DNA of 64,000 bases, from assembly GCA_020630975.1 (NCBI GenBank), contig JAHDID010000003.1, positions 200,474-264,473 on the forward strand, read 5' to 3'. This stretch comes from Verrucomicrobiota bacterium (GTDB taxonomy: Bacteria > Verrucomicrobiota > Verrucomicrobiia > Verrucomicrobiales > DEV007). Of this stretch, positions 17,241 through 28,097 are shown piece after piece (positions within the stretch are counted from its first letter, which is position 1; each line of letters begins with the position of its first letter). The position numbers and the translations under genes were made by a program. The notes under the pieces are model-generated. The model worked only from the letters and a program-made list of their open reading frames with translations, was not told where the DNA came from and made no database searches.

Positions 17241-20200
17241 CTAGTAGATATAGATAAACTCCTTCAGATTAAACAACGAATGCGCGAAGCTCTGCCACAC
17301 CGCGTTTTCACCGAGAGGCTGCCCTTCTCGTTGCAGCGCAGCCAGTTCTGCAGATAGGGTCTCGATACTAGCCTCAGTCTCGTGGTACTGAGTGCGTTCG
17401 ATGTCGGAGAGTGCATCGATCACATCCTGACGTGTCACACCAGCTCGACCGCCCGCCAGTGCTGCGATGGTATCGGCGGCGAGTGCTGTGGGGTAGACTC
17501 TGGCGTGGTGGATGAGGCCGGCGATGTTTCGATTGCCGCCATTACCGGTGCCGTGGCGTAGACCGATTACGATCTGGGATTTACCTTTCTGATAGTGGAT
17601 AGGCTCACCTTTCGTGTAGGGTTGGCCGTAGGGCTCACCATCGCGGTAGGCGCGGATGGTGCCGTCGGCATCGTAGGCGACCACTAGGTGTACTGGCGCA
17701 TCGGTAGCGGTCTGCTCTGGATCGCCGCCAAAGTCCTGGGTGCGGCGATGATGATTGCTGCCTGCTAGCCACTCGCCACTCTTACGCTCGGCGTAGACGA
17801 TCCCGTCGAAGGTGTGGCCATCGACCGTCTGCACGGAGAGGACACCACCGCTCTTTTGTCTGAGATTGTCCAGCGTCACGAGAGCCTCCAGTGTCTTTTC
17901 TCGCAGATCGACGTCGAGCGGATCGGCGAAAAAACTCGAGTTGCCATCTAGCACCAGACTGCCGTCCTCTACCTTGGCATTGCCAGTGAGGCGGCCGCCC
18001 AGATCGGCATCGCTATCAAAGTCCCAGCTGGCTATCGCGCCGAGCTTCATCGGGTCGAGCGGCTCTGGCTGCTCGGGTAGGGCGGCCACTAGTCGATCGC
18101 GCACCGGAGCGAGGCGATCGCGATTTTGCGCCTGCAGCTGGTCGATCTTCTCCTGCAGGCTGGCGATATCTGCCTGCAGGCCTGCCTGACCGCTGCGCAG
18201 ACTCTGGAGAAAGCCGCTACCTGCCGCTACCTCCTGCTCGCTGGCCGGGCGACCTAGCGCCTGGCTCCACATGGCTGCGATGCGCGCCTCGTCGCCCTGC
18301 ACATCGCGGAAGCGATTGGCAAAGGCCTCAGCGTAGCGATACATCACCCGATCGTTCAGCATGGTCAGCGACTGGGCGGGCACATTGGTCACTGGGCGCT
18401 TGCCAGTGGTGGAGAATGGCACCGGCGCATCGAACACACCTAGGAATGGGTCGAGTCGATTGCGGATCACCTCCACGTACACCGAGCGGCGTGGTGTACC
18501 GCCATTCACTGCAGGGCCGTAGAGCCGCTCATCGAGCAGGCCGGATACCGCGAATAACTTGTCGCGGATCGCCTCGGCCTCGAGGCGGCGCACGGGGTAG
18601 TGCGAGAGTAGGCGATTCTCGGGATCGCTCTCGCTAGCGGCGGCGCTGGCGGTGCTGCTCTGCTGCCAGGTAGCGGAGCTTACGATCTCGCGGATCAACG
18701 ATTTGATCGACCAATCCATCTCGCTATCAAAACGGCTGGCTAGGTAATCGAGCAGCTCGGGGTGGCTGGGCTTTTCGCCTAGGCGGCCAAAGTTGTCCAC
18801 CGAGCCGACGATGCCATTGCCAAAGAGATGGGTCCACACGCGGTTCACGATCACTCGGCGGGTGAAAGGATTATCGGCGCGCAGCATATCGGCGGCCAGC
18901 TCTAGGCGACCGCTGGTGGGCGACTCGTAAGGCGTGGCATCGACAGCCTCGAGGAAACGGCGGCTCACTGGCTCGAGCGGCTTTTTGTGATCGCCTCGAT
19001 CGTATAGTGGATTGTCGGTGCCGACCCATTCGTCCAGCCCTGGTATGCGGGTAGGCACGGCGATCTCGGCTTCGAGTTTTCTATACTTAGCGATCAGGTC
19101 CGCAGCTTGACCGAGACTGGATAGTTGATTCGGCAATAGCTGCTCGCCTACTAGGTGGTCGAGCAGCATCACCTGCGGATCGGAAATTTCTCCAGCACGC
19201 CAGTTTTCTATACTATCTCGTGCTACTGATACGATGGCCGCTGCGAGCGACTCGGCAGAATCTGGAGCAGGCTGCCCATCGAGAGCTAGCCACATCTCTA
19301 GCATGGGATTGCTCGGTATCGGGGTGCCTTTGGCTGCGAGTATACCACCGCGAATACCGAACCAGGAGCGATCCGTCTTGTCCATTTCGACCGCCGAGTC
19401 TCTAGCTGTCGATAGCTCGATATGGATGCTATCGCCATCCCAGTAGGAGAGATCGTAGGTCTTCCAGTGCCACTGCGAGCGCTGAGCATCTTTTTTCGGC
19501 CCCATCCGCTCGATGGGAAAGACGGTGCCACGGCGGGGGTAGTTTTGTACCACGGTGCGATTCATCGCCTGGCCGCCACCATTTACCAATAGCATGAGAG
19601 TCATCTCACCATTGGGGCTGAACTCGGTGGAGGTCACACGCCCAGCGTGCTTGGTCGATAGTAGGCCGCTGTACAGACCTGCCGGAGCGATGTGATCGAT
19701 CGCTAGATCGCCCTCGGCATGGATGGCGAAGTCGCCACTCGCTGCCTGCTGCACACCATTGCCATAGCGATACCAGCCAGCCTCGTCCGAGGTATCGAAT
19801 TCGACCTTTGCATCGATAGCGCGAATGTTGTTCTTCGCCGTGTCCACCACGCGTTGCAGAGCCTGGCCGGGTGTCAGTTGCTTGTCTTTGTGGAGTAGGT
19901 GAAAGGGGTGATAGATGGAGCCAGCGTTTTTGCCCTGCTTCCAGTTTTCTTTATTTAGCAGAGCGGCCTGCATCTGGTCGAGAGAGGCCAGCCAGTCGGT
20001 GGCCACAGCCTGGCGAATGGCTGGCTTTAGCTCGGATAGTTCGGCTTTGTTTTTCTCCAGCGCATCGGGTAGATCGGTCAGTTTTCTGCCCGGGCGAGTC
20101 GAGCCGAGTATACCGAATAGGGCGTAGTAATCGGCCTGGGAGATGGCGTCGAATTTGTGGTTGTGACAACGGGCGCAGCTCACTGTGAGGCCCTGGAAAG

Positions 20201-21248
20201 CTTTGGTGAAGGTATTGATCTGGTCATCGGTGAAGCGGACTTTTTCATCCAGCGCATCGGTCGGGGCAAAGCCGTGGAAACACATGCGCCAGTGGATAGC
20301 ACCGAGTACCGATTCATTGAGTGCTAGCTCATCATTCACCCGTGGGGTCTCCAGCAGATCACCCGCGATGTGCTCGCGCAGCAGCTGATCGTAGGGGATG
20401 TCGGCATTCAGCGCGCGGATCAGATAGTCGCGGTAGTGGTGGGCACCATCGATACGCGGATCGCCCTCGGAGCCGTGGCTCTCGGCGTAGCGCACCCAGT
20501 CCATCCAGTGCCGCGCCCAGCGCTCGCCGTAGTGTGGGCTGGCGAGCAGCTCATCGATCAGGGCATCGGTAGCGGCTTGGCGATCACTAGCCGCAGCGGT
20601 CTCAAAGGCATCGAGCTGCTCCGGTGTCGCGGGCAGGCCGGTCAGGGCATAGTGCAGCCGCCGCGCCAGCACACGCGGCTCGGCGGGGGCTGCGGGCGAT
20701 AGGTCACCTAGCTGCACCGCTACAAAGCGATCGATTACCTCGCCCTCGGCTGCGGGTATGAGCGGCTCCTCGATTGGCTGAAAGCTCCACCACTTTTGGC
20801 GATTTTTGAAAGTGATCTCCCAGCTATCGTCCGCTGCCAGCTCCTCCTCGGTCGGCGGATGATCACGCGGGTCGGGTGCGCCCATATCGATCCATTTGCG
20901 AAAGTCATCGATGATCTCCTTTTCCAGCATCACACCCGCCTTAGGCATCTCTAGCCCATCGATGTGCAGCAGCGCATCCATCAGCAGCGAGTACTCCGCA
21001 TTCCCCGGCTCGATCGCCGGCCCACCATCGCCGCCCTCCAGCAGTCCATCGCGGTAGTCCAGCACCAGACCAGCCTTCTGTATGCCATGCGAGCTATGGC
21101 ACTCGTAGCACTCCTGAGCTAGGACGGGGCGGATCTTGTTTTCGAAAAACTCCAGCTGATCCGCCGGGATCTCAGCCGCATGGACGCTGAGACTGAGACA
21201 AAACACGGTGTATGTATAGATCAGCCCCAGCCGGAGCCTCCCGCTCAA
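17241..21248 (-). CDS. Planctomycete cytochrome (PSCyt1/DUF1549/DUF1553) protein with LamG-like domain
   Basis: A large secreted protein (about 1335 residues from the proposed start). After a signal-like segment ([17 protein letters not shown]) comes the haem-type CYECH motif in [18 protein letters not shown]1549 follows ([40 protein letters not shown]). A carbohydrate-binding-like insert precedes DUF1553 ([36 protein letters not shown]). A LamG/concanavalin-like domain near the C-terminus has [15 protein letters not shown]. The frame is open far upstream to 21737, but that stretch is translated repeat DNA. A TTG at 21248, at the edge of repeat unit 1, gives a clean signal peptide and is preferred. 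Co-transcribed with the DUF1501 gene. Confidence 0.9.
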
Positions 21249-21354
21249 GGAGGGGCGTACGTCTCGTCGCCCGGCAGGCTGAGCCAAAGAATCCGGAACG
21301 AAGCGCCAGCCCAACGGCCGAGGTTGCCCAGCGACGAGACGTCGCCCCTCCTTG
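21246..21354. repeat. Large hairpin repeat, unit 1
   Basis: Begins CAAGGAGGGGCG and ends CGCCCCTCCTTG. The inner arms GACGAGACGTC-type sequences also pair. The inside (CGGCAGGCTGAGCCAAAGAA and AGCGCCAGCCCAACGGCCGA) is shared almost exactly with unit 3. It overlaps the proposed start codon of the PSCyt1 gene. Confidence 0.88.
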
Positions 21355-21389
21355 ATTGGCTTCGCTTGGCTCAGCCGAAGAATTCCGCT

Positions 21390-21476
21390 CAAGGAGGGGC
21401 TGCCTTCAGCTGCCCGGCAGGCTGAGCCATATCCTCCGGCCGAGGTAGCCGGGCAGCTAGAAGCAGCCCCTCCTTG
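21390..21476. repeat. Large hairpin repeat, unit 2 (variant)
   Basis: Shares the CAAGGAGGGGC end and the CCGGCAGGCTGAGCCA core, but the stem sequence is different (CTGCCTTCAGCTGCCCGGC pairing with GCCGGGCAGCTAGAAGCAG). Compensating changes in both arms preserve pairing, which suggests the structure matters. Confidence 0.85.
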
Positions 21477-21521
21477 ATCCTTAAATCTCTGAAACCACCC
21501 GCACCATCGACGTCTAAATCC

Positions 21522-21630
21522 CAAGGAGGGGCGCACGTCCCGTCGCCCGGCAGGCTGAGCCAAAGAATCCGGAATGAAGCGCCAGCCCGACGGCCGAGGT
21601 TGCCCAGCGACGAGACGTCGCCGCTCCTTG
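21522..21630. repeat. Large hairpin repeat, unit 3
   Basis: Near-identical to unit 1 over 109 bp, with a few substitutions (for example GCGCACGTCCCG for GCGTACGTCTCG). ATTGGCTTCGCTT follows both units. The 21249-21733 stretch between IclR and the PSCyt1 gene consists of these units plus the paired 14-mer; no other gene was found there. Confidence 0.88.
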
Positions 21631-21685
21631 ATTGGCTTCGCTTCCACTCGCCGCAGCCCTCCTAGACACCTCTTTCCCCTAAATT

Positions 21686-21720
21686 CAATAGGGTACAATT
21701 TTGACTCAATAGGGTACAAT
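21686..21720. repeat. Paired CAATAGGGTACAAT motif, locus 1
   Basis: CAATAGGGTACAAT occurs at 21686-21699 and again at 21707-21720, a 21-bp period. It lies just past the iclR stop. The same paired motif recurs at 52900-52934 (reverse orientation) and 63432-63466. Confidence 0.9.
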
Positions 21721-21733
21721 CGTGAAAAAAGTC

Positions 21734-22519
21734 TCATAATAACAGGCGGTCTTGGATCTCAGCTGCAGCAGCGACACACTCCTCGCCAAAGCGAGCAAAA
21801 TCGGCTTCGTCATTCATACGAAATACAGGTGCCATCATGGTGATAGCCGCTACTGGATACTGGTAGTGATTAAAGATCGGTGCCGCGACACAGCGGATCC
21901 CCTCGAGCCCCTCTGAGTCGTCGATCGCATAGCCACGCTCCCGAGTCGCGGCTAGGTCAGCGTGCAGTGCCTTTTTGGAGGAAAGCGTGGTCGCCGTGAA
22001 TTTCTTGAGCTTCGTCCCCGCCGCCCACTCGCCCAGCTCCTCCTTCGGCAGCCAGGCTAGGATCGCCTTGCCCGGTGCGCAGGAGTAGAGCGGCACCCGC
22101 ATACCGACCTCGCCCATCACCTTTACCGGATGCTTGCCCGAGACCTGCTCCAGCACCACACACTTGTCCTCGGAGCGCACCAGCAGCTGGCAAGTCTCCA
22201 GCGTCCGCTCCGCTAGCCCCTGCATCGTCTCGTAGGCGCACACAGTCAGGCTTTTCTCGTTCACCCGCGGGCGGCTCAGGTCGAAGAGCTTATTGGACAG
22301 CAGGTACTTCTTATCCGACTCCCGCCGGTGCAGGTAACCCCGCTCGTGCAGCACACTGGTGATGCGAAAGGCCGAATTCTGCGAGATCCCCAGCTCACGC
22401 GTGATATCCGCGATACTGGCTCCCATCGCTGACTCGGCGAGCATTTCTAGGATGGCTAGTGTACGGTCCGTACCTGGACTCAAAGATTCTACCTCTGCAG
22501 CTACTGTCTGACCACTCAT
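21734..22519 (-). CDS. IclR family transcriptional regulator
   Basis: A 261-residue DNA-binding regulator. The N-terminal winged helix-turn-helix is seen in TLAILEMLAESAMGASIADI and LGISQNSAFRITSVLHERGY. The C-terminal effector domain has family features: GMRVPLYSCAPGKAILAWLP, ERGYAIDDSEGLEGIRCVAA and a final VAAITMMAP. IclR proteins usually control catabolic genes in response to small aromatic or sugar-acid ligands. It is encoded upstream of and in the same direction as the PSCyt1-DUF1501 pair, with hairpin repeats between; control of that pair is possible but not shown. Confidence 0.92.
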   Translation of the reverse strand: MSGQTVAAEVESLSPGTDRTLAILEMLAESAMGASIADITRELGISQNSAFRITSVLHERGYLHRRESDKKYLLSNKLFDLSRPRVNEKSLTVCAYETMQGLAERTLETCQLLVRSEDKCVVLEQVSGKHPVKVMGEVGMRVPLYSCAPGKAILAWLPKEELGEWAAGTKLKKFTATTLSSKKALHADLAATRERGYAIDDSEGLEGIRCVAAPIFNHYQYPVAAITMMAPVFRMNDEADFARFGEECVAAAAEIQDRLLL

Positions 22520-22588: not shown

Positions 22589-22981
22589 TCATTCTGATTC
22601 TAGCCATTCATTCAGAGGTTTGCCCTCTTTGCGGATAGAATCTTCGGTGTGGACGCCTTCCGCATAGAGGACCTGGCCAGCCTTTAGATCGAGTAGGGCC
22701 GATGCGGCACCTTCGGCCCATTCTGCTTCCGAATGATCAGCGAATAGTCTGTCGTAGTGCTCGATATTGGGAAGAAACAGTAGTAATGATTGGATAGAAA
22801 CCTTCTTTCTAACTCGCTTACATGCATCCTTAAGGCCAAACATTTCGAAAGACGGATACCAGAAAAATAAAGCAAGACAAAAACACCACAACCCGTCTCT
22901 TGCCCATCGCGGTTCAGCACTTTTAAATTTTTGGCAAGTGGATATACATATGAAAGGAGCTACAACATCATAAGATTCCAA
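22589..22981 (-). CDS. Unknown protein immediately downstream of the HD-Hsp90 gene
   Basis: The reading frame is open from directly after the HD-Hsp90 stop (23060-23062) to 22589 and lies in the same frame as that gene, giving up to 157 codons. The first usual start is TTG 22981 (130 residues); an ATT at 23047 follows a purine-rich AAGAGGGGGG, and ATG 22843 would give 84 residues. The sequence has a hydrophobic middle (LWCFCLALFFWYPSFEMFGL), a basic patch (KDACKRVRKKVS) and an acidic C-terminus (EAEWAEGAASALLDL). No family was recognised. It may be a separate partner gene, or the remnant C-terminus of a longer HD-Hsp90 protein cut by a TAA. Confidence 0.45.
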   Translation of the reverse strand: MESYDVVAPFICISTCQKFKSAEPRWARDGLWCFCLALFFWYPSFEMFGLKDACKRVRKKVSIQSLLLFLPNIEHYDRLFADHSEAEWAEGAASALLDLKAGQVLYAEGVHTEDSIRKEGKPLNEWLESE

Positions 22982-23059
22982 CCAATTGGGCTTTGCTGCT
23001 AATTGCCTCCCAAAGGTTAGAGGACCAGATAACTCGCAATCGTCAATCCCCCCTCTTAA

Positions 23060-26000
23060 TTAATCCAAATTAAAAGCATTTAGACAAGATGATAATTCTG
23101 GTTTAATCCCAAATGAACAAATCGCAATTTTGATAAATTCACAAAGCCGGTTCCCGACTATATTGTTTTCTGACGAAAGAACCTTCAATACTGGCTCATC
23201 GATAGGCCCCGTAGCAAGCCCCAACCATACACTCCCAATGGGGTAAGAATAAGAAAGCTCCTGAGCAAATTTAAAATAGAGCTCACAATCAAAACCGGGG
23301 CTTTGATCAAAATTTAATGCAACCCTAGATAAGGCCTTAGCAAATTCTTCTGACTTATCACGGAAAATCTTCATCAATGCACCGTCTGGAGTATTATACA
23401 TTAAGCTGAGCATCAGCTTGCCCTCCATCAAGATTTCAAAATTCCAGAGAGTTAAAGTAGAATTGCCTACTCCTATTTTGAAATTTGTCCAATTTTCCTT
23501 GCGTCCATGAGGCCATTGATTACATGAAATGGCACTTTTCAACCAAATACTCAAATCTATACAAACCTGTGTAAACCATGCATCCCAAACGTCATGCTGT
23601 TGATTTAAATCATTTAATTCAGGTTTTATAGGTGCTGATCGATCTGCTCGTAACGAAGGTGCTGCGCCACCTCGAAGATCAATCCAAAGCCAGCACCCTC
23701 TACCACACCACATCGGTAGATTTTCTAGTATGCTGAGTAGATGACATACTCGCGGGTCAGATGATGGAGAGTAACCTGGTAAAATTCGCACCCCATTTAC
23801 GATACACTGGTAACGAAGATGCGGCTGCGGTAGTTGTAATTCGCTATGCGCATGAATCCCGCCACGATAGCCACCTGATGGAAGTTGATCGCTATATTTC
23901 TGCCAATCTGTCAGAGTCCTACTCCTCATAGGATCGCCGCCGGGTTGAGCTGCGACGATACGTATACGACTACCAGTACCACTTATCTGGGCGTTAGTCC
24001 TGGGCTCATGGACCCAATCGCATAGCTCCCAATCGCTATCTTTTATCTCTGGTATCTCGACACCCCATTCGCGAGCTTTGTCATAGCAGGCTTCGGGTTG
24101 AAATGGAACTAGGTCCCGAAAGTGGAAACTATCGTCAATCGTAATCGAATCGCCCTCAGCCCCTAAGATGACCGGGTAGAGTGGCCAAACGATAAATCGC
24201 CCAATCTCGATAGCGGGGTCGATCGCTCCCTTCACATATTTGGGTTCGTGTTTGGAATCGGTATTTGTTTCGTAAAATTCACTTCGTAGAAGATCGATGC
24301 TTCTCTCTCGATCCCACTCGCGCCAAGTGAGGTCGGGTTTTAACCAAAGCTTGATGGTGGTGCCGTAGTCTAGCGAATCAGTCGCAGGATAGAACTCGAT
24401 GAGGCTATGTGGACCATCAATAATGGCGTGAGTGCCTCTATCCGCATCCAAAGTACGGCTCCAAATCTCGACTCGTTCCGACAGCATAAATACCGACAGA
24501 AACCCAATACCAAACTGCGAGATCGCTGTACACAAAATTCCGTGGCGGCGCATCATCTCCTGCTCGCGCTGGAAGTCGGGGGAGCGGTAGTAGCTTTTGC
24601 CGATCTGGGTGAGGAAGCGGCGCATCGAGTCGATGCTCATCCCAACGCCGTTGTCGCGGATGGTGATCCACTCACCCTCTTTGGAGTCACCTCCCCATTC
24701 GACTCGCACCTGCGGCTCCTCTAGATCCCACGGCTGGCGGGGAGAGCGCATTTGGGATTCTTCTCCCTTTTCTTTAAGAGCCAAGTAGAGCTTGTCACGC
24801 TGATCACGGAGGTGCACGGCATCGAGCGCATTTTGCACTAGCTCGCGCAGGGCTAGCTCGGGACCACCGTAGAGACTCTCCCCCATGAGCAGCTCGACCA
24901 CGGCATCGCGATCGAGGTGAAAGCCGACATCGTGAAATTCGTAATCGCCCTTGCGCGTTTTGATTTCTATCTCAGCTAGACTGGGGAGTGCTGGTATACT
25001 CGGTGCATCTGGGGTAGCCGCTAGCTCCTTGCGACATTTACCGATCTCGTCGTTCATCCAGCCCTCGATTTGGCGCAGCGACTTGTGGACTTTCGGGCTG
25101 GGGCATTCGAGGCAGGTGTATAGTAAAGTCTCGCCATCGTCGCCTTTCTGCCACTGAGGAGCCTCTTTAATGGAAAGGTGTTTTCTCCACTCCGTTTCGC
25201 TGAATTTATCGGTGATACCAGCCGTCTCGAAAAGGATGCTGGGTGTGCGGGACGCATCGCAATCGAATACATCAGCCAGTCGCAGCAACCAGCCTACCCA
25301 AGTCCAATGGATCTCACCCAAAGAAGCACCGTAATTCTCTGCTCCTGCTTGGTCGCCCAATTCCCGTGGTAACCAGCTGATATCTTGATTGTGACTGACC
25401 GCCACCTTGGCCAAACACTGAGGTAAGCCAGGATAACTCTCGAAGACAGACTGTACTTGAAGGCTGTGCTCCTCGATCGCCTCCAGCCAGTTCCATATGC
25501 GGCAGTAGTCAGTAGCAGCACTGATCTGGGCATGGCTCTCGCGAACGTAGTCGGCTCGAATGGCGCCAAGCTTTCGCTCGCGTACAGTGGAATCGGTCTC
25601 ACGGTGCACCGAGTGCCACATCGAATGACCTTCGCGATAGGCACGCCAGTCGATCGCCTCCTTTTTGGCTTCTATTTCAGGATCGCTTGCAGCAGCTTCG
25701 AGATCAGCCGCATCGCAATACTTGATAATTCGCTCCTCCTCTTGATCCAAGACCAATCCAAGGTCGTGAATAAATGCCACCCAGACAGCCACCAGGCAAT
25801 CGCCAGCATCCAAGTCATTGATCGCCTCCCACCCACCAGCTAAGTGCTCCATGGTGCCGAGTACATTCCAGAGGTGAGTGTGGTCATGCAGCGTGAACTG
25901 CGGCAGAAATTCGCGCACTCGTGAACTGATCGATTCTGCCATGCCTACCAGCTCTCGGGTGGCGGTCACAAGATGTTCCAAGGAAGGGTTCCCCCCCGAC

Positions 26001-26071
26001 AATGCCTTGAGCCTCTGGCAAAAGGCAGATTCCTCGAAACTTGTGACTGGTTTGGCGGTAGTGGTGGGCAT
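23060..26071 (-). CDS. HD-domain plus Hsp90-type (GHKL) ATPase protein, putative conflict-system protein
   Basis: A cytosolic protein of ~1003 residues from ATG 26071 (an upstream start at 26131 is possible). N-terminal HD-type region: LHDHTHLWNV (61-70) and FIHDLG (100-105), then WLLRLADVFDCDASRTP near 265. An Hsp90/GHKL ATPase follows: N-box LALRELVQNALDAVH (~407-420), IRDNGVGMS (471-479) and SQFGIGFLSVFML (518-530). The last ~400 residues are unlike anything I recognise. Proteins joining such an HD region to an Hsp90-like ATPase are often found in bacterial conflict or defence islands; that role is inferred here. The 3' third of the gene is visibly AT-rich compared with its 5' end. It is downstream of a DUF433/DUF5615 pair. 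Confidence 0.8.
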   Translation of the reverse strand: MPTTTAKPVTSFEESAFCQRLKALSGGNPSLEHLVTATRELVGMAESISSRVREFLPQFTLHDHTHLWNVLGTMEHLAGGWEAINDLDAGDCLVAVWVAFIHDLGLVLDQEEERIIKYCDAADLEAAASDPEIEAKKEAIDWRAYREGHSMWHSVHRETDSTVRERKLGAIRADYVRESHAQISAATDYCRIWNWLEAIEEHSLQVQSVFESYPGLPQCLAKVAVSHNQDISWLPRELGDQAGAENYGASLGEIHWTWVGWLLRLADVFDCDASRTPSILFETAGITDKFSETEWRKHLSIKEAPQWQKGDDGETLLYTCLECPSPKVHKSLRQIEGWMNDEIGKCRKELAATPDAPSIPALPSLAEIEIKTRKGDYEFHDVGFHLDRDAVVELLMGESLYGGPELALRELVQNALDAVHLRDQRDKLYLALKEKGEESQMRSPRQPWDLEEPQVRVEWGGDSKEGEWITIRDNGVGMSIDSMRRFLTQIGKSYYRSPDFQREQEMMRRHGILCTAISQFGIGFLSVFMLSERVEIWSRTLDADRGTHAIIDGPHSLIEFYPATDSLDYGTTIKLWLKPDLTWREWDRERSIDLLRSEFYETNTDSKHEPKYVKGAIDPAIEIGRFIVWPLYPVILGAEGDSITIDDSFHFRDLVPFQPEACYDKAREWGVEIPEIKDSDWELCDWVHEPRTNAQISGTGSRIRIVAAQPGGDPMRSRTLTDWQKYSDQLPSGGYRGGIHAHSELQLPQPHLRYQCIVNGVRILPGYSPSSDPRVCHLLSILENLPMWCGRGCWLWIDLRGGAAPSLRADRSAPIKPELNDLNQQHDVWDAWFTQVCIDLSIWLKSAISCNQWPHGRKENWTNFKIGVGNSTLTLWNFEILMEGKLMLSLMYNTPDGALMKIFRDKSEEFAKALSRVALNFDQSPGFDCELYFKFAQELSYSYPIGSVWLGLATGPIDEPVLKVLSSENNIVGNRLCEFIKIAICSFGIKPELSSCLNAFNLD

Positions 26072-26209
26072 GGGATGGACACTCAAATCTGGAGTTCTAG
26101 ATTTGGTAACGGATACAACCCTGCCAAACAAGACAGAAATCTGACGAAGGCGTTACTTTGATTCGCCGGCTCTCACTAAGCCGAATCGAAAAATACCACT
26201 CTAACTTTC

Positions 26210-26539
26210 TCAGCGGATCTCGATTACGGTTTCTCCGTTGCCGATACTGGCTTCGATCTCAGCCAGTAATGGCTCGAACCAGTCTAGCAGAGCCTGGCGC
26301 GAGCAGTTGCCGATGCGGAGCCAAATGATCACTGGAGGTGTAGCCACTAACATCGCGCGATTTCGGAAGTCTTCATCTTTCGTGATGATAACGGCACTGG
26401 TTTCCAATGCGTAGTCCCAGATCGATTCGTCGGATTCGGCTCCCATACCGACATCGTTTACATGTTCAGCGACATGCCCTTCTTCTGCTAGGACACGGGC
26501 TAGCGCAGGCGGTAACTGTGCGTCTACGATCCAGCGCAT
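26210..26539 (-). CDS. DUF5615 PIN-like protein (toxin of a toxin-antitoxin-like pair)
   Basis: A 109-residue protein with the PIN-like fold of the DUF5615/Mut7-C group. The first acidic residue is in MRWIVDAQLPPALARVLAEE. The second conserved region is AVIITKDEDFRNRAM, with PPVIIWLRIGNCSRQ after it. These are the two signature regions of the family, whose members are predicted RNases paired with DUF433 antitoxins. It starts 16 bp after the DUF433 stop on the same strand, as expected for such a pair. No activity can be shown from sequence. Confidence 0.88.
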   Translation of the reverse strand: MRWIVDAQLPPALARVLAEEGHVAEHVNDVGMGAESDESIWDYALETSAVIITKDEDFRNRAMLVATPPVIIWLRIGNCSRQALLDWFEPLLAEIEASIGNGETVIEIR

Positions 26540-26555
26540 CGATCAATGCCTGTCT

Positions 26556-26792
26556 CTAAGCAGCTTGAGGGGGGACTGACAAAACCGGATGATCGATTTG
26601 AGCAGCTGCATACTGGATCGCTGCATCGATATCCTCATCTTCCAAATAGGGAAAGTCTTCGAGAATTTCTTCTCTAGTTACTTTAGCAGCTAGTAGATCA
26701 AGAACATCTTTGACGCGGATCCGCATCCCGCGAATGCATGGCCTACCACCACATTTTCCAGGTTCGATGGTGATCCGATCTAAGTGATCCAT
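26556..26792 (-). CDS. DUF433 antitoxin-like protein
   Basis: A 78-residue protein from ATG 26792 (a GTG at 26825 would add 11 residues and abut the neighbouring stop). The DUF433 signature is plain: ITIEPGKCGGRPCIRGMRIR, then VKDVLDLLAAKVTREEILED and FPYLEDEDIDAAIQYAA. DUF433 proteins carry a helix-turn-helix-like fold and act as antitoxin partners of DUF5615 PIN-like proteins. It is the first gene of the pair and may autoregulate. Confidence 0.9.
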   Translation of the reverse strand: MDHLDRITIEPGKCGGRPCIRGMRIRVKDVLDLLAAKVTREEILEDFPYLEDEDIDAAIQYAAAQIDHPVLSVPPQAA

Positions 26793-26825
26793 GGGATAAC
26801 ATAACCGCTTTCGCTGCTTTTTCAC

Positions 26826-28097
26826 CTATTTCTCTAGCGCCCGAAATGCCCGCTGGCTGTGCTCTCGCGCAATACGATTACCGATCTGGCGAGACACTTC
26901 GGTGATGGCGGGTTTGAGAAAGCGTCCCATGCCTTGGTCTTTCAACAGGGATCGAGCTTCTGCTTTTGATAGCTGGCTGGACATGGCGTCCTCGAGCTGC
27001 TGCATCTGGCTGGGACTGACCAGCTCTGCGCGGTGGACGAACACTCGGACTAATTCGGAGGGCTGTGGCGATATCTCGATCGGCACTAGGGTGTCGACGA
27101 TCTCGCGTGGGACAATGGAGAATGCGCGCAAGCCAGGCTCGGCGAACCAGTGCTTTTTCCAAGTGTCGATCATCACTCGTGCCTCATCCGCTGTGAGTCC
27201 CTCCTCTATCATAGCGCGATGGATGGACTCGTGGAGGCCTTGTTGCTCAGTTTGCTCTAGTTTGGCGATTTCGAAATCAAGATGCCCTCCATCCTCTACA
27301 GGTCGATTCAGCTTTTGCCAAGCAAAGGAGTCGGCCTTGCGATTGTCGACTAGCCATACCGCGCCGACCTTAGCATCAGCAGAGTAGCGTACCATACCAG
27401 CACTAGGCATCGTCACGGGGCTACTTACGGAAGTGTGGCTGGCACCTCGGTAGAAGATGAATTTCTCATGCTCAATCGGGCGGGCGTCGCCATTGGGTTT
27501 TACGGCCACATAGGCAGCATTTGGCACATCGCGAGCGATGTAGTAGTGGTTGTCTGGCTTTTCGGAGTCTACTGGTAGCGAGAGCTTGCCAGCCTCTGCA
27601 GGCGGTAGCAAATCGGCTCGCCAACCGACCTGATAGCGGGTCATCGGTATCGGCCGGGATGTGTTTTCGAGTAGTTTGACTTTTTGGGGAAAGGGATAGA
27701 CCTCGGTGATGTGCCCCTCTTGCATCGACACATCGACCTCTACCTGCTGTGGGGTGTCGGTATAGAAATAAATAACTGGCGTCTCCATGCGTAATGAATA
27801 AACACCAAACTTGCTACCCAATCCTGGCTTGACAAAATCCGGCAACTCAGACACTGCGCCCTCAGTCGCAGGGTTGTACCACGATAGGTTATTCCCCTTG
27901 GGTAGGTGGAAAGTCGTAAATGTCCCCCACTCGTGAATATCTAATCGGGGCGGTACTTCGCTATCTTCTGCCAAGCTGATACCTAGACTAAGCAGACAAA
28001 GACAAAATAAAGTAAGTGGGAAATACCATGGGCTAGCCGACGGATGAATTGGGGAATCTGTCATGGATTCATCATGAATCCGAGCTTCACTGTCCAC
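26826..28097 (-). CDS. Secreted protein of unknown function with HEWGTFT motif
   Basis: A 423-residue protein (or 413 from the second methionine). A hydrophobic signal segment (YFPLTLFCLCLLSLGISLAE) is followed by DIHEWGTFT (residues ~53-61), a motif I associate with uncharacterised secreted proteins of PVC-group bacteria. Beta-rich sequence follows (SLRMETPVIYFYTDTPQQVE, VGAVWLVDNRKADSFAWQKL). A helical C-terminal part ends with repeated QLEDAMSSQLSKAEARS-like helices. The stop directly abuts the DUF433 frame, but signal and function differ, so co-regulation is doubtful. Confidence 0.7.
   Translation of the reverse strand: MDSEARIHDESMTDSPIHPSASPWYFPLTLFCLCLLSLGISLAEDSEVPPRLDIHEWGTFTTFHLPKGNNLSWYNPATEGAVSELPDFVKPGLGSKFGVYSLRMETPVIYFYTDTPQQVEVDVSMQEGHITEVYPFPQKVKLLENTSRPIPMTRYQVGWRADLLPPAEAGKLSLPVDSEKPDNHYYIARDVPNAAYVAVKPNGDARPIEHEKFIFYRGASHTSVSSPVTMPSAGMVRYSADAKVGAVWLVDNRKADSFAWQKLNRPVEDGGHLDFEIAKLEQTEQQGLHESIHRAMIEEGLTADEARVMIDTWKKHWFAEPGLRAFSIVPREIVDTLVPIEISPQPSELVRVFVHRAELVSPSQMQQLEDAMSSQLSKAEARSLLKDQGMGRFLKPAITEVSRQIGNRIAREHSQRAFRALEK

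What the first reader, a model, noticed from the sequence alone, without database searches (positions are those of the whole stretch)
22589..26792. Accessory island: DUF433/DUF5615 pair, HD-Hsp90 ATPase protein and an unknown downstream ORF
Four leftward ORFs sit between an IclR gene and a secreted protein: DUF433, DUF5615, a ~1003-residue protein joining an HD-like region to a GHKL/Hsp90 ATPase, and an unclassified ORF. HD plus Hsp90-type ATPase proteins tend to occur in conflict or defence loci, and toxin-antitoxin-like pairs cluster in such islands. The grouping is seen; a shared defence role is inferred. This is the best candidate here for a poorly described system.
Basis: partly seen in the sequence, partly recalled or inferred. 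Interest (0 to 1): 0.62.

Follow-up and report, generated by a model that had tools for sequence, protein, structure and literature searches.

The report
Broken HD–Hsp90 gene beside toxin–antitoxin pair
The four reading frames are three genes: a known type of toxin–antitoxin pair, and one large accessory gene that joins a predicted metal-dependent hydrolase to an Hsp90-type ATP switch; a stop codon has cut that gene short here, its relatives often sit among anti-virus genes, and its job has never been tested as far as could be found.

Summary
The cluster is real, but it holds three genes, not four. The "unclassified downstream ORF" (22589-22981) is in the same frame as the ~1003-residue ORF, separated by one TAA (23060-23062). 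It matches the C-terminus of intact homologues of 1209 and 1243 aa (E 4e-12 and 3e-11), so it is the severed tail of one ~1160-codon gene. That gene encodes an HD-CE domain (Pfam PF24391) with complete HD metal-ligand residues, then an Hsp90-type GHKL ATPase with all its motifs. An invariant Arg (R811, 22 of 22 homologues) follows, in a loop that aligns with the HtpG middle-domain catalytic loop, so an Hsp90 N+M module is likely. The C-terminal part is fast-evolving. The gene is accessory: HD-CE is in 22 of 387 genomes of the order, and 33 congeners have only one distant copy. About half of 24 homologous loci, sampled across several phyla, lie beside restriction-modification, Shedu, Abi or toxin–antitoxin genes. 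DUF433/DUF5615 is a described PIN-type toxin–antitoxin pair; it does not travel with HD–Hsp90. Most likely this is a single-gene, ATP-gated anti-virus effector whose copy here is truncated. Defence is inferred, not shown.

The parts
26556..26792 (-). DUF433 gene (predicted antitoxin of a PIN-type toxin-antitoxin pair); GTG at 26825 is an alternative start
   Evidence: PF04255 E 1.3e-25; sequence match to solved DUF433 protein 2ga1, E 2e-5
26210..26539 (-). DUF5615 gene (predicted PIN-like RNase toxin), 16 bp after DUF433
   Evidence: PF18480 E 3.5e-27 and PF18478 PIN_10 E 5.7e-9
23060..26071 (-). Main HD-Hsp90 ORF, 1003 codons plus the in-frame TAA
25043..25906 (-). HD-CE domain (residues 56-343); H62, H66, H102-D103, R177, H180, H227, D267, R275 conserved in the family
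   Evidence: PF24391 E 4.4e-32; residue counts in 22 homologues
24278..24922 (-). Hsp90-type N-domain ATPase (residues 384-598): ELVQNALDA, DNGVGM, GIGF and GT boxes intact
23582..24277 (-). Post-ATPase region (residues 599-830), proposed Hsp90 middle-domain-like; invariant R811 at 23639-23641
   Evidence: R811 in 22 of 22; hhalign to HtpG M region 17-24 against at most 14.7 for shuffled profiles, placing the loop on HtpG PLNISRE; profile A6 aligns over HtpG 8-531
23060..23062 (-). In-frame premature TAA
   Evidence: direct reading of the sequence
22589..23059 (-).
   Evidence: same frame; 27.8% identity, E 4e-12 to L062 and 25%, E 3e-11 to L069 C-termini
21734..22519 (-). Flank: IclR regulator (not part of the system); its pairing with the PSD1/PSCyt2 gene is conserved in several congeners
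26826..28097 (-). Flank: 423-aa ORF without a Pfam match (not part of the system)

Best explanation
The large gene is an accessory, single-gene effector of the HD-CE-Hsp90 family. In intact members an HD metal-dependent phosphohydrolase/phosphodiesterase domain is fused to an Hsp90-like ATPase (N-domain plus a probable middle domain carrying the catalytic arginine), followed by a fast-evolving C-terminal region. Most likely the variable C-terminal region senses an intruder or cell damage, ATP-driven closure of the Hsp90-like clamp rearranges the protein, and this unleashes the HD enzyme on nucleotides or nucleic acid so that infection aborts. Shown here: the domains, intact active-site residues, patchy distribution and frequent company of defence genes. 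Inferred: sensing, clamp closure, the HD substrate and the anti-phage outcome. In this genome the gene is cut by one TAA that removes the last 156 codons, so this copy is probably inactive or impaired. The DUF433/DUF5615 pair upstream is a separate, ordinary toxin-antitoxin module.
For: HD-CE and Hsp90-type domains with conserved catalytic residues in 22 divergent homologues. R811 invariant and aligned to the HtpG catalytic loop. Same-frame tail homologous to the C-termini of intact relatives. HD-CE in 22 of 387 genomes of the order; among 33 congeners only a distant copy in G027. Homologues lie between YhcG/DUF1016 and an N6-methylase (L101), next to HsdM with NACHT-type and KAP NTPases (L067), near Shedu (L057), type I restriction (L058), AbiEii (L060, L065), Zeta (L100), ParD (L094). 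238 PADLOC families hit among 96 neighbours against 44 among 96 control genes. HD-CE is also fused to a reverse transcriptase (L070). A GHKL ATPase-nuclease fusion, VcSduA, has published anti-phage activity that needs both domains (PMC12137116).
Against: No experiment on this family was found in the papers searched. Around the window itself PADLOC finds no defence gene in 10 ORFs tested. About half of the homologous loci have no recognised defence gene and there is no conserved partner. No homologue was found in viral contigs. The HD substrate is unknown, the structure model failed, and the stop codon could be an assembly error.
Confidence: 0.6

Rival explanations
1. A specialised Hsp90-type chaperone or stress-signalling phosphohydrolase, carried as an accessory gene, with no role in conflict; the HD domain would hydrolyse a signalling nucleotide.
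For: The ATPase is truly Hsp90-like; the HD profile's best solved matches are cyclic-nucleotide phosphodiesterases, though weakly (E 0.002); several homologues sit beside ordinary genes.
Against: Patchy presence, repeated placement inside restriction loci (L067, L101), plasmid copies, HD-CE fused to a reverse transcriptase.
Confidence: 0.22
2. All genes of the island form one system in which DUF433/DUF5615 is co-opted as toxin, controlled by the HD-Hsp90 protein.
For: Same strand, close spacing, in one accessory stretch.
Against: tblastn finds DUF433/DUF5615 in none of the other HD-Hsp90 loci; a second pair elsewhere in the genome stands alone; about 140 bp separate the pair from HD-Hsp90.
Confidence: 0.06
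3. The stop at 23060 is an assembly or sequencing error and the gene is intact (~1160 aa).
For: 156 codons after it remain open and homologous; the genome is a draft in 158 contigs.
Against: Other family copies are also broken, one by an in-frame TAA (L099) and one by a frameshift on a complete plasmid (L057), as expected if such genes are often lost.
Confidence: 0.3
4. The truncated 1003-residue product is functional as it stands and the tail is dispensable.
For: HD, ATPase and the R811 loop all lie before the stop; many homologues are only about 790-1030 aa long and lack this tail.
Against: Both closest relatives keep the tail with a conserved end motif.
Confidence: 0.25

Closest known systems
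HD-CE domain family (Pfam PF24391)
   Same: The window protein scores 112 bits against a cut-off of 27 over 261 of 263 positions
   Different: The family is a domain; no functional test of an HD-CE-Hsp90 protein was found in the papers searched
HtpG/Hsp90 chaperone
   Same: N-domain motifs E410, N414, D417, DNGVGM, GIGF; probable M-domain catalytic Arg loop
   Different: Fused to an HD enzyme, with a different and variable C-terminal region, accessory; an HtpG-like protein is present separately in the genome (L002)
VcSduA, a GHKL ATPase-PD-(D/E)xK nuclease anti-phage protein (PMC12137116)
   Same: One polypeptide with a GHKL ATPase and a hydrolase
   Different: HD enzyme instead of Shedu nuclease, opposite domain order, Hsp90-type rather than generic GHKL; no activity data
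PADLOC TmtA family
   Same: Weak match over the ATPase motif only (E 9e-5)
   Different: No HD domain matched and no full-length similarity
DUF433-PIN toxin-antitoxin pairs (Makarova 2009, PMC2701414; e.g. Rv2018/Rv2019)
   Same: DUF433 directly upstream of a PIN-like gene on the same strand
   Different: Nothing notable

Membership tests
HD-CE (PF24391) | Profile match above the curated cut-off | tested here: met
   112.2 bits against 27
HD-CE (PF24391) | HD metal ligands present (H..HD..H..H..D) | tested here: met
   H66, H102-D103, H180, H227, D267 conserved in 20 or more of 22 homologues, the rest mostly gaps
Hsp90 family | GHKL N-domain with Hsp90-type motifs | tested here: met
   NCBIfam HSP90 family E 1.2e-23, PDB Hsp90 chains E 3e-9; motif residues in 22 of 22
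Hsp90 family | Middle domain with catalytic Arg | tested here: inconclusive
   R811 invariant and aligned to HtpG PLNISRE above shuffled controls, but hhalign probability is only 1-6%, PDB search with the region alone found nothing, and no usable model was obtained
Hsp90 family | C-terminal dimerisation domain | tested here: inconclusive
   No sequence similarity recognised; the structure model failed
Hsp90 family (HtpG equivalog) | Full-length score above the curated cut-off | tested here: not met
   72 bits against 371; 83.5 against 455 for PRK14083
Known anti-phage system in PADLOC 2.0.0 | Full-length match to a system's protein | tested here: not met
   Only partial weak TmtA matches
Anti-phage defence (by activity) | Protects cells from phage | not testable with these tools
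   Needs an experiment
DUF433-PIN toxin-antitoxin pair | DUF433 next to a PIN-type gene on one strand | tested here: met
   Adjacent, same strand, 16 bp apart; PIN_10 match E 5.7e-9; family described in PMC2701414
DUF433-PIN toxin-antitoxin pair | Toxicity and neutralisation | not testable with these tools
   Needs expression assays

The most novel reading that the evidence does not exclude
HD-CE-Hsp90 proteins are an undescribed class of single-gene immune effectors in which a genuine Hsp90 N+M clamp acts not as a chaperone but as an ATP-gated switch on a fused HD hydrolase, with a rapidly diversifying C-terminal sensor.
Probability: 0.35. Interest if true: 0.65.

Novelty: new variant of a known kind. 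Interest (0 to 1): 0.42.

Why it matters
If confirmed, it would show the Hsp90 clamp recruited as an immune switch and give a function to the HD-CE domain, which also occurs fused to a reverse transcriptase. The family is widespread (the window's own phylum, Bacteroidota, Bacillota, Campylobacterota), is absent from the PADLOC defence library as a full-length family, and intact members are single genes that are easy to test. It also warns that an 'unknown downstream ORF' in such islands can be the tail of a broken gene.

Tried and rejected
Separate small downstream gene: rejected, same frame and homologous tail. Conserved operon with DUF433/DUF5615: rejected on present data. Conserved partner gene of HD-Hsp90: none seen across loci by eye. 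The first HtpG comparison used a polluted alignment; a cleaned one showed no overall M-domain match, and only the later 22-sequence alignment placed the Arg loop. Horizontal replacement of the C-terminal half because of its low GC3: not claimed, since L062 and L069 show the same trend more weakly. The PADLOC comparison of neighbours with controls is crude: models are redundant, the control hits listed are mostly kinase-type models, and neighbours include plasmid loci while controls come from contigs of the phylum. Paper searches for HD-CE, Hsp90-like defence proteins and related terms found no description of the family.

Full report
What is there. The stretch 22589-26825 carries, leftward, DUF433 (26556-26792), DUF5615 (26210-26539) and a 1003-residue ORF starting at the ATG at 26071. 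Pfam and NCBIfam place an HD-CE domain at residues 56-343 (E 4.4e-32) and an Hsp90-type ATPase at about 384-598 (E 1.2e-23 to the NCBIfam HSP90 family model, far below its equivalog cut-off).

The fourth ORF is not a gene of its own. Reading the minus strand without a break, the 1003-residue ORF ends at a TAA (23060-23062) and the same frame then stays open for 156 codons to 22589. The tail matches the C-terminus of the 1209-aa homologue L062 (27.8% identity, E 4e-12) and of the 1243-aa homologue L069 (25%, E 3e-11), including the end motif 'VYAPGLHDRESIRKEGVSLNKLL' / 'LYAEGVHTEDSIRKEGKPLNEWL'. In 5000 base shuffles of the tail none was free of stops. So one ~1160-codon gene is cut by a nonsense codon, or the assembly has an error there. 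Two other family copies are also broken: a frameshift in L057 on a complete plasmid and an in-frame TAA in L099.

Anatomy of the family. I collected 22 proteins with both domains, the window's included. In an alignment, the HD residues H62, H66, H102-D103, R177, H180, H227 and D267 and the ATPase residues E410, N414, D417, D473, G475, G477, G521, G523 are present in all or nearly all. Beyond the ATPase, R811 is invariant in 22 of 22. Several homologues read LPINIQR, MPLNLQR or LPLTTQR there, like PLNISRE in HtpG, whose arginine completes the Hsp90 ATPase site (established knowledge). Profile comparison puts this loop on the HtpG loop with scores of 17-24 against at most 14.7 for 20 shuffled profiles, though the formal probability is only 1-6%; a profile of ATPase plus C-terminal part aligns to E. 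coli HtpG over residues 8-531 in one stretch, while the C-terminal part alone finds nothing in the PDB. I conclude that an Hsp90 middle domain is likely but unproven. The rest of the C-terminus diverges fast: identity to L062 falls from 43 of 80 residues in the ATPase to 10 of 80 at residues 881-960. The HD profile touches cyclic-nucleotide phosphodiesterases and an HD hydrolase only weakly (E 0.002).

Distribution. HD-CE (E <= 1e-12) is in 22 of 387 genomes of the order. Among the 33 congeners only G027 has a distant HD-Hsp90 (26% identity over part). In several congeners the IclR gene keeps its neighbour, the PSD1/PSCyt2 gene, but what lies upstream of IclR differs.

Context of homologues. 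Of 24 loci, about half have a recognised defence or toxin-antitoxin gene within about 6 kb: Shedu (L057), type I restriction (L058), Abi protein (L059), AbiEii with integrases (L060), AbiEii (L065), an AAA_13 ATPase (L066), HsdM with NACHT-type and KAP NTPases (L067), an addiction-module component (L069), ParD (L094), Zeta toxin (L100), and YhcG/DUF1016 plus an N6-methylase on either side (L101). Against PADLOC, 96 neighbours hit 238 models and 96 control genes from genomes of the same set hit 44, the listed ones mostly kinase-type models; this is supportive but crude. HD-CE also occurs fused to a reverse transcriptase in L070. The remaining loci have ordinary or unrecognised neighbours, and around the window itself PADLOC finds no other defence gene in ten ORFs.

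The DUF433/DUF5615 pair. DUF433 with a PIN-type gene is a toxin-antitoxin pair predicted in 2009 (PMC2701414). The sequence here fits it. A second pair stands alone elsewhere in this genome (L126), and tblastn finds the pair at no other HD-Hsp90 locus. It is best seen as an independent module in the same accessory stretch.

How it probably works. By analogy with VcSduA, where a GHKL ATPase fused to a nuclease needs both activities for phage protection (PMC12137116), I propose that intact HD-CE-Hsp90 proteins are ATP-gated effectors: the variable C-terminal part senses, the Hsp90-like clamp closes on ATP, and the HD enzyme is set free. The domain facts are shown; sensing, gating, substrate and outcome are inferred. 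In this genome the copy has lost its tail and may be inactive.

Verdict. The interesting object is the HD-CE-Hsp90 family, which is not in PADLOC as a full-length family and for which I found no paper; the individual copy in the window is a truncated member.

Noticed in passing
window 21228-21643: A GC-rich palindromic repeat (unit about 40 nt, two 122-nt copies 96% identical) sits at the IclR/PSD1 junction and seems to inflate the N-terminus of the 1498-aa ORF 17241-21737; 102 matches to it occur in this genome, i.e. a REP-like interspersed family.
   Followed up: partly
L070:8857-12267 (G113): HD-CE domain fused to the C-terminal side of a reverse transcriptase (RVT_1 E 1.7e-8, HD-CE E 5.9e-25), a possible undescribed defence reverse transcriptase.
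   Followed up: no
L109:6768-10046 (G070): HD-CE match together with a response-regulator receiver domain in one 1093-aa protein.
   Followed up: no
L126:1277-1863 (own genome, C49): Second DUF433-DUF5615 pair, adjoining frames, between ordinary genes.
   Followed up: partly
window 22589-24277: C-terminal half of the HD-Hsp90 gene has markedly lower third-position GC (about 0.39-0.40) than the front half (about 0.59-0.65); a weaker drop is seen in homologues.
   Followed up: partly
L057:7905-10726 and L099:8452-10686: Two other family members are broken, by a frameshift and by an in-frame TAA, hinting at frequent loss of function in the family.
   Followed up: partly
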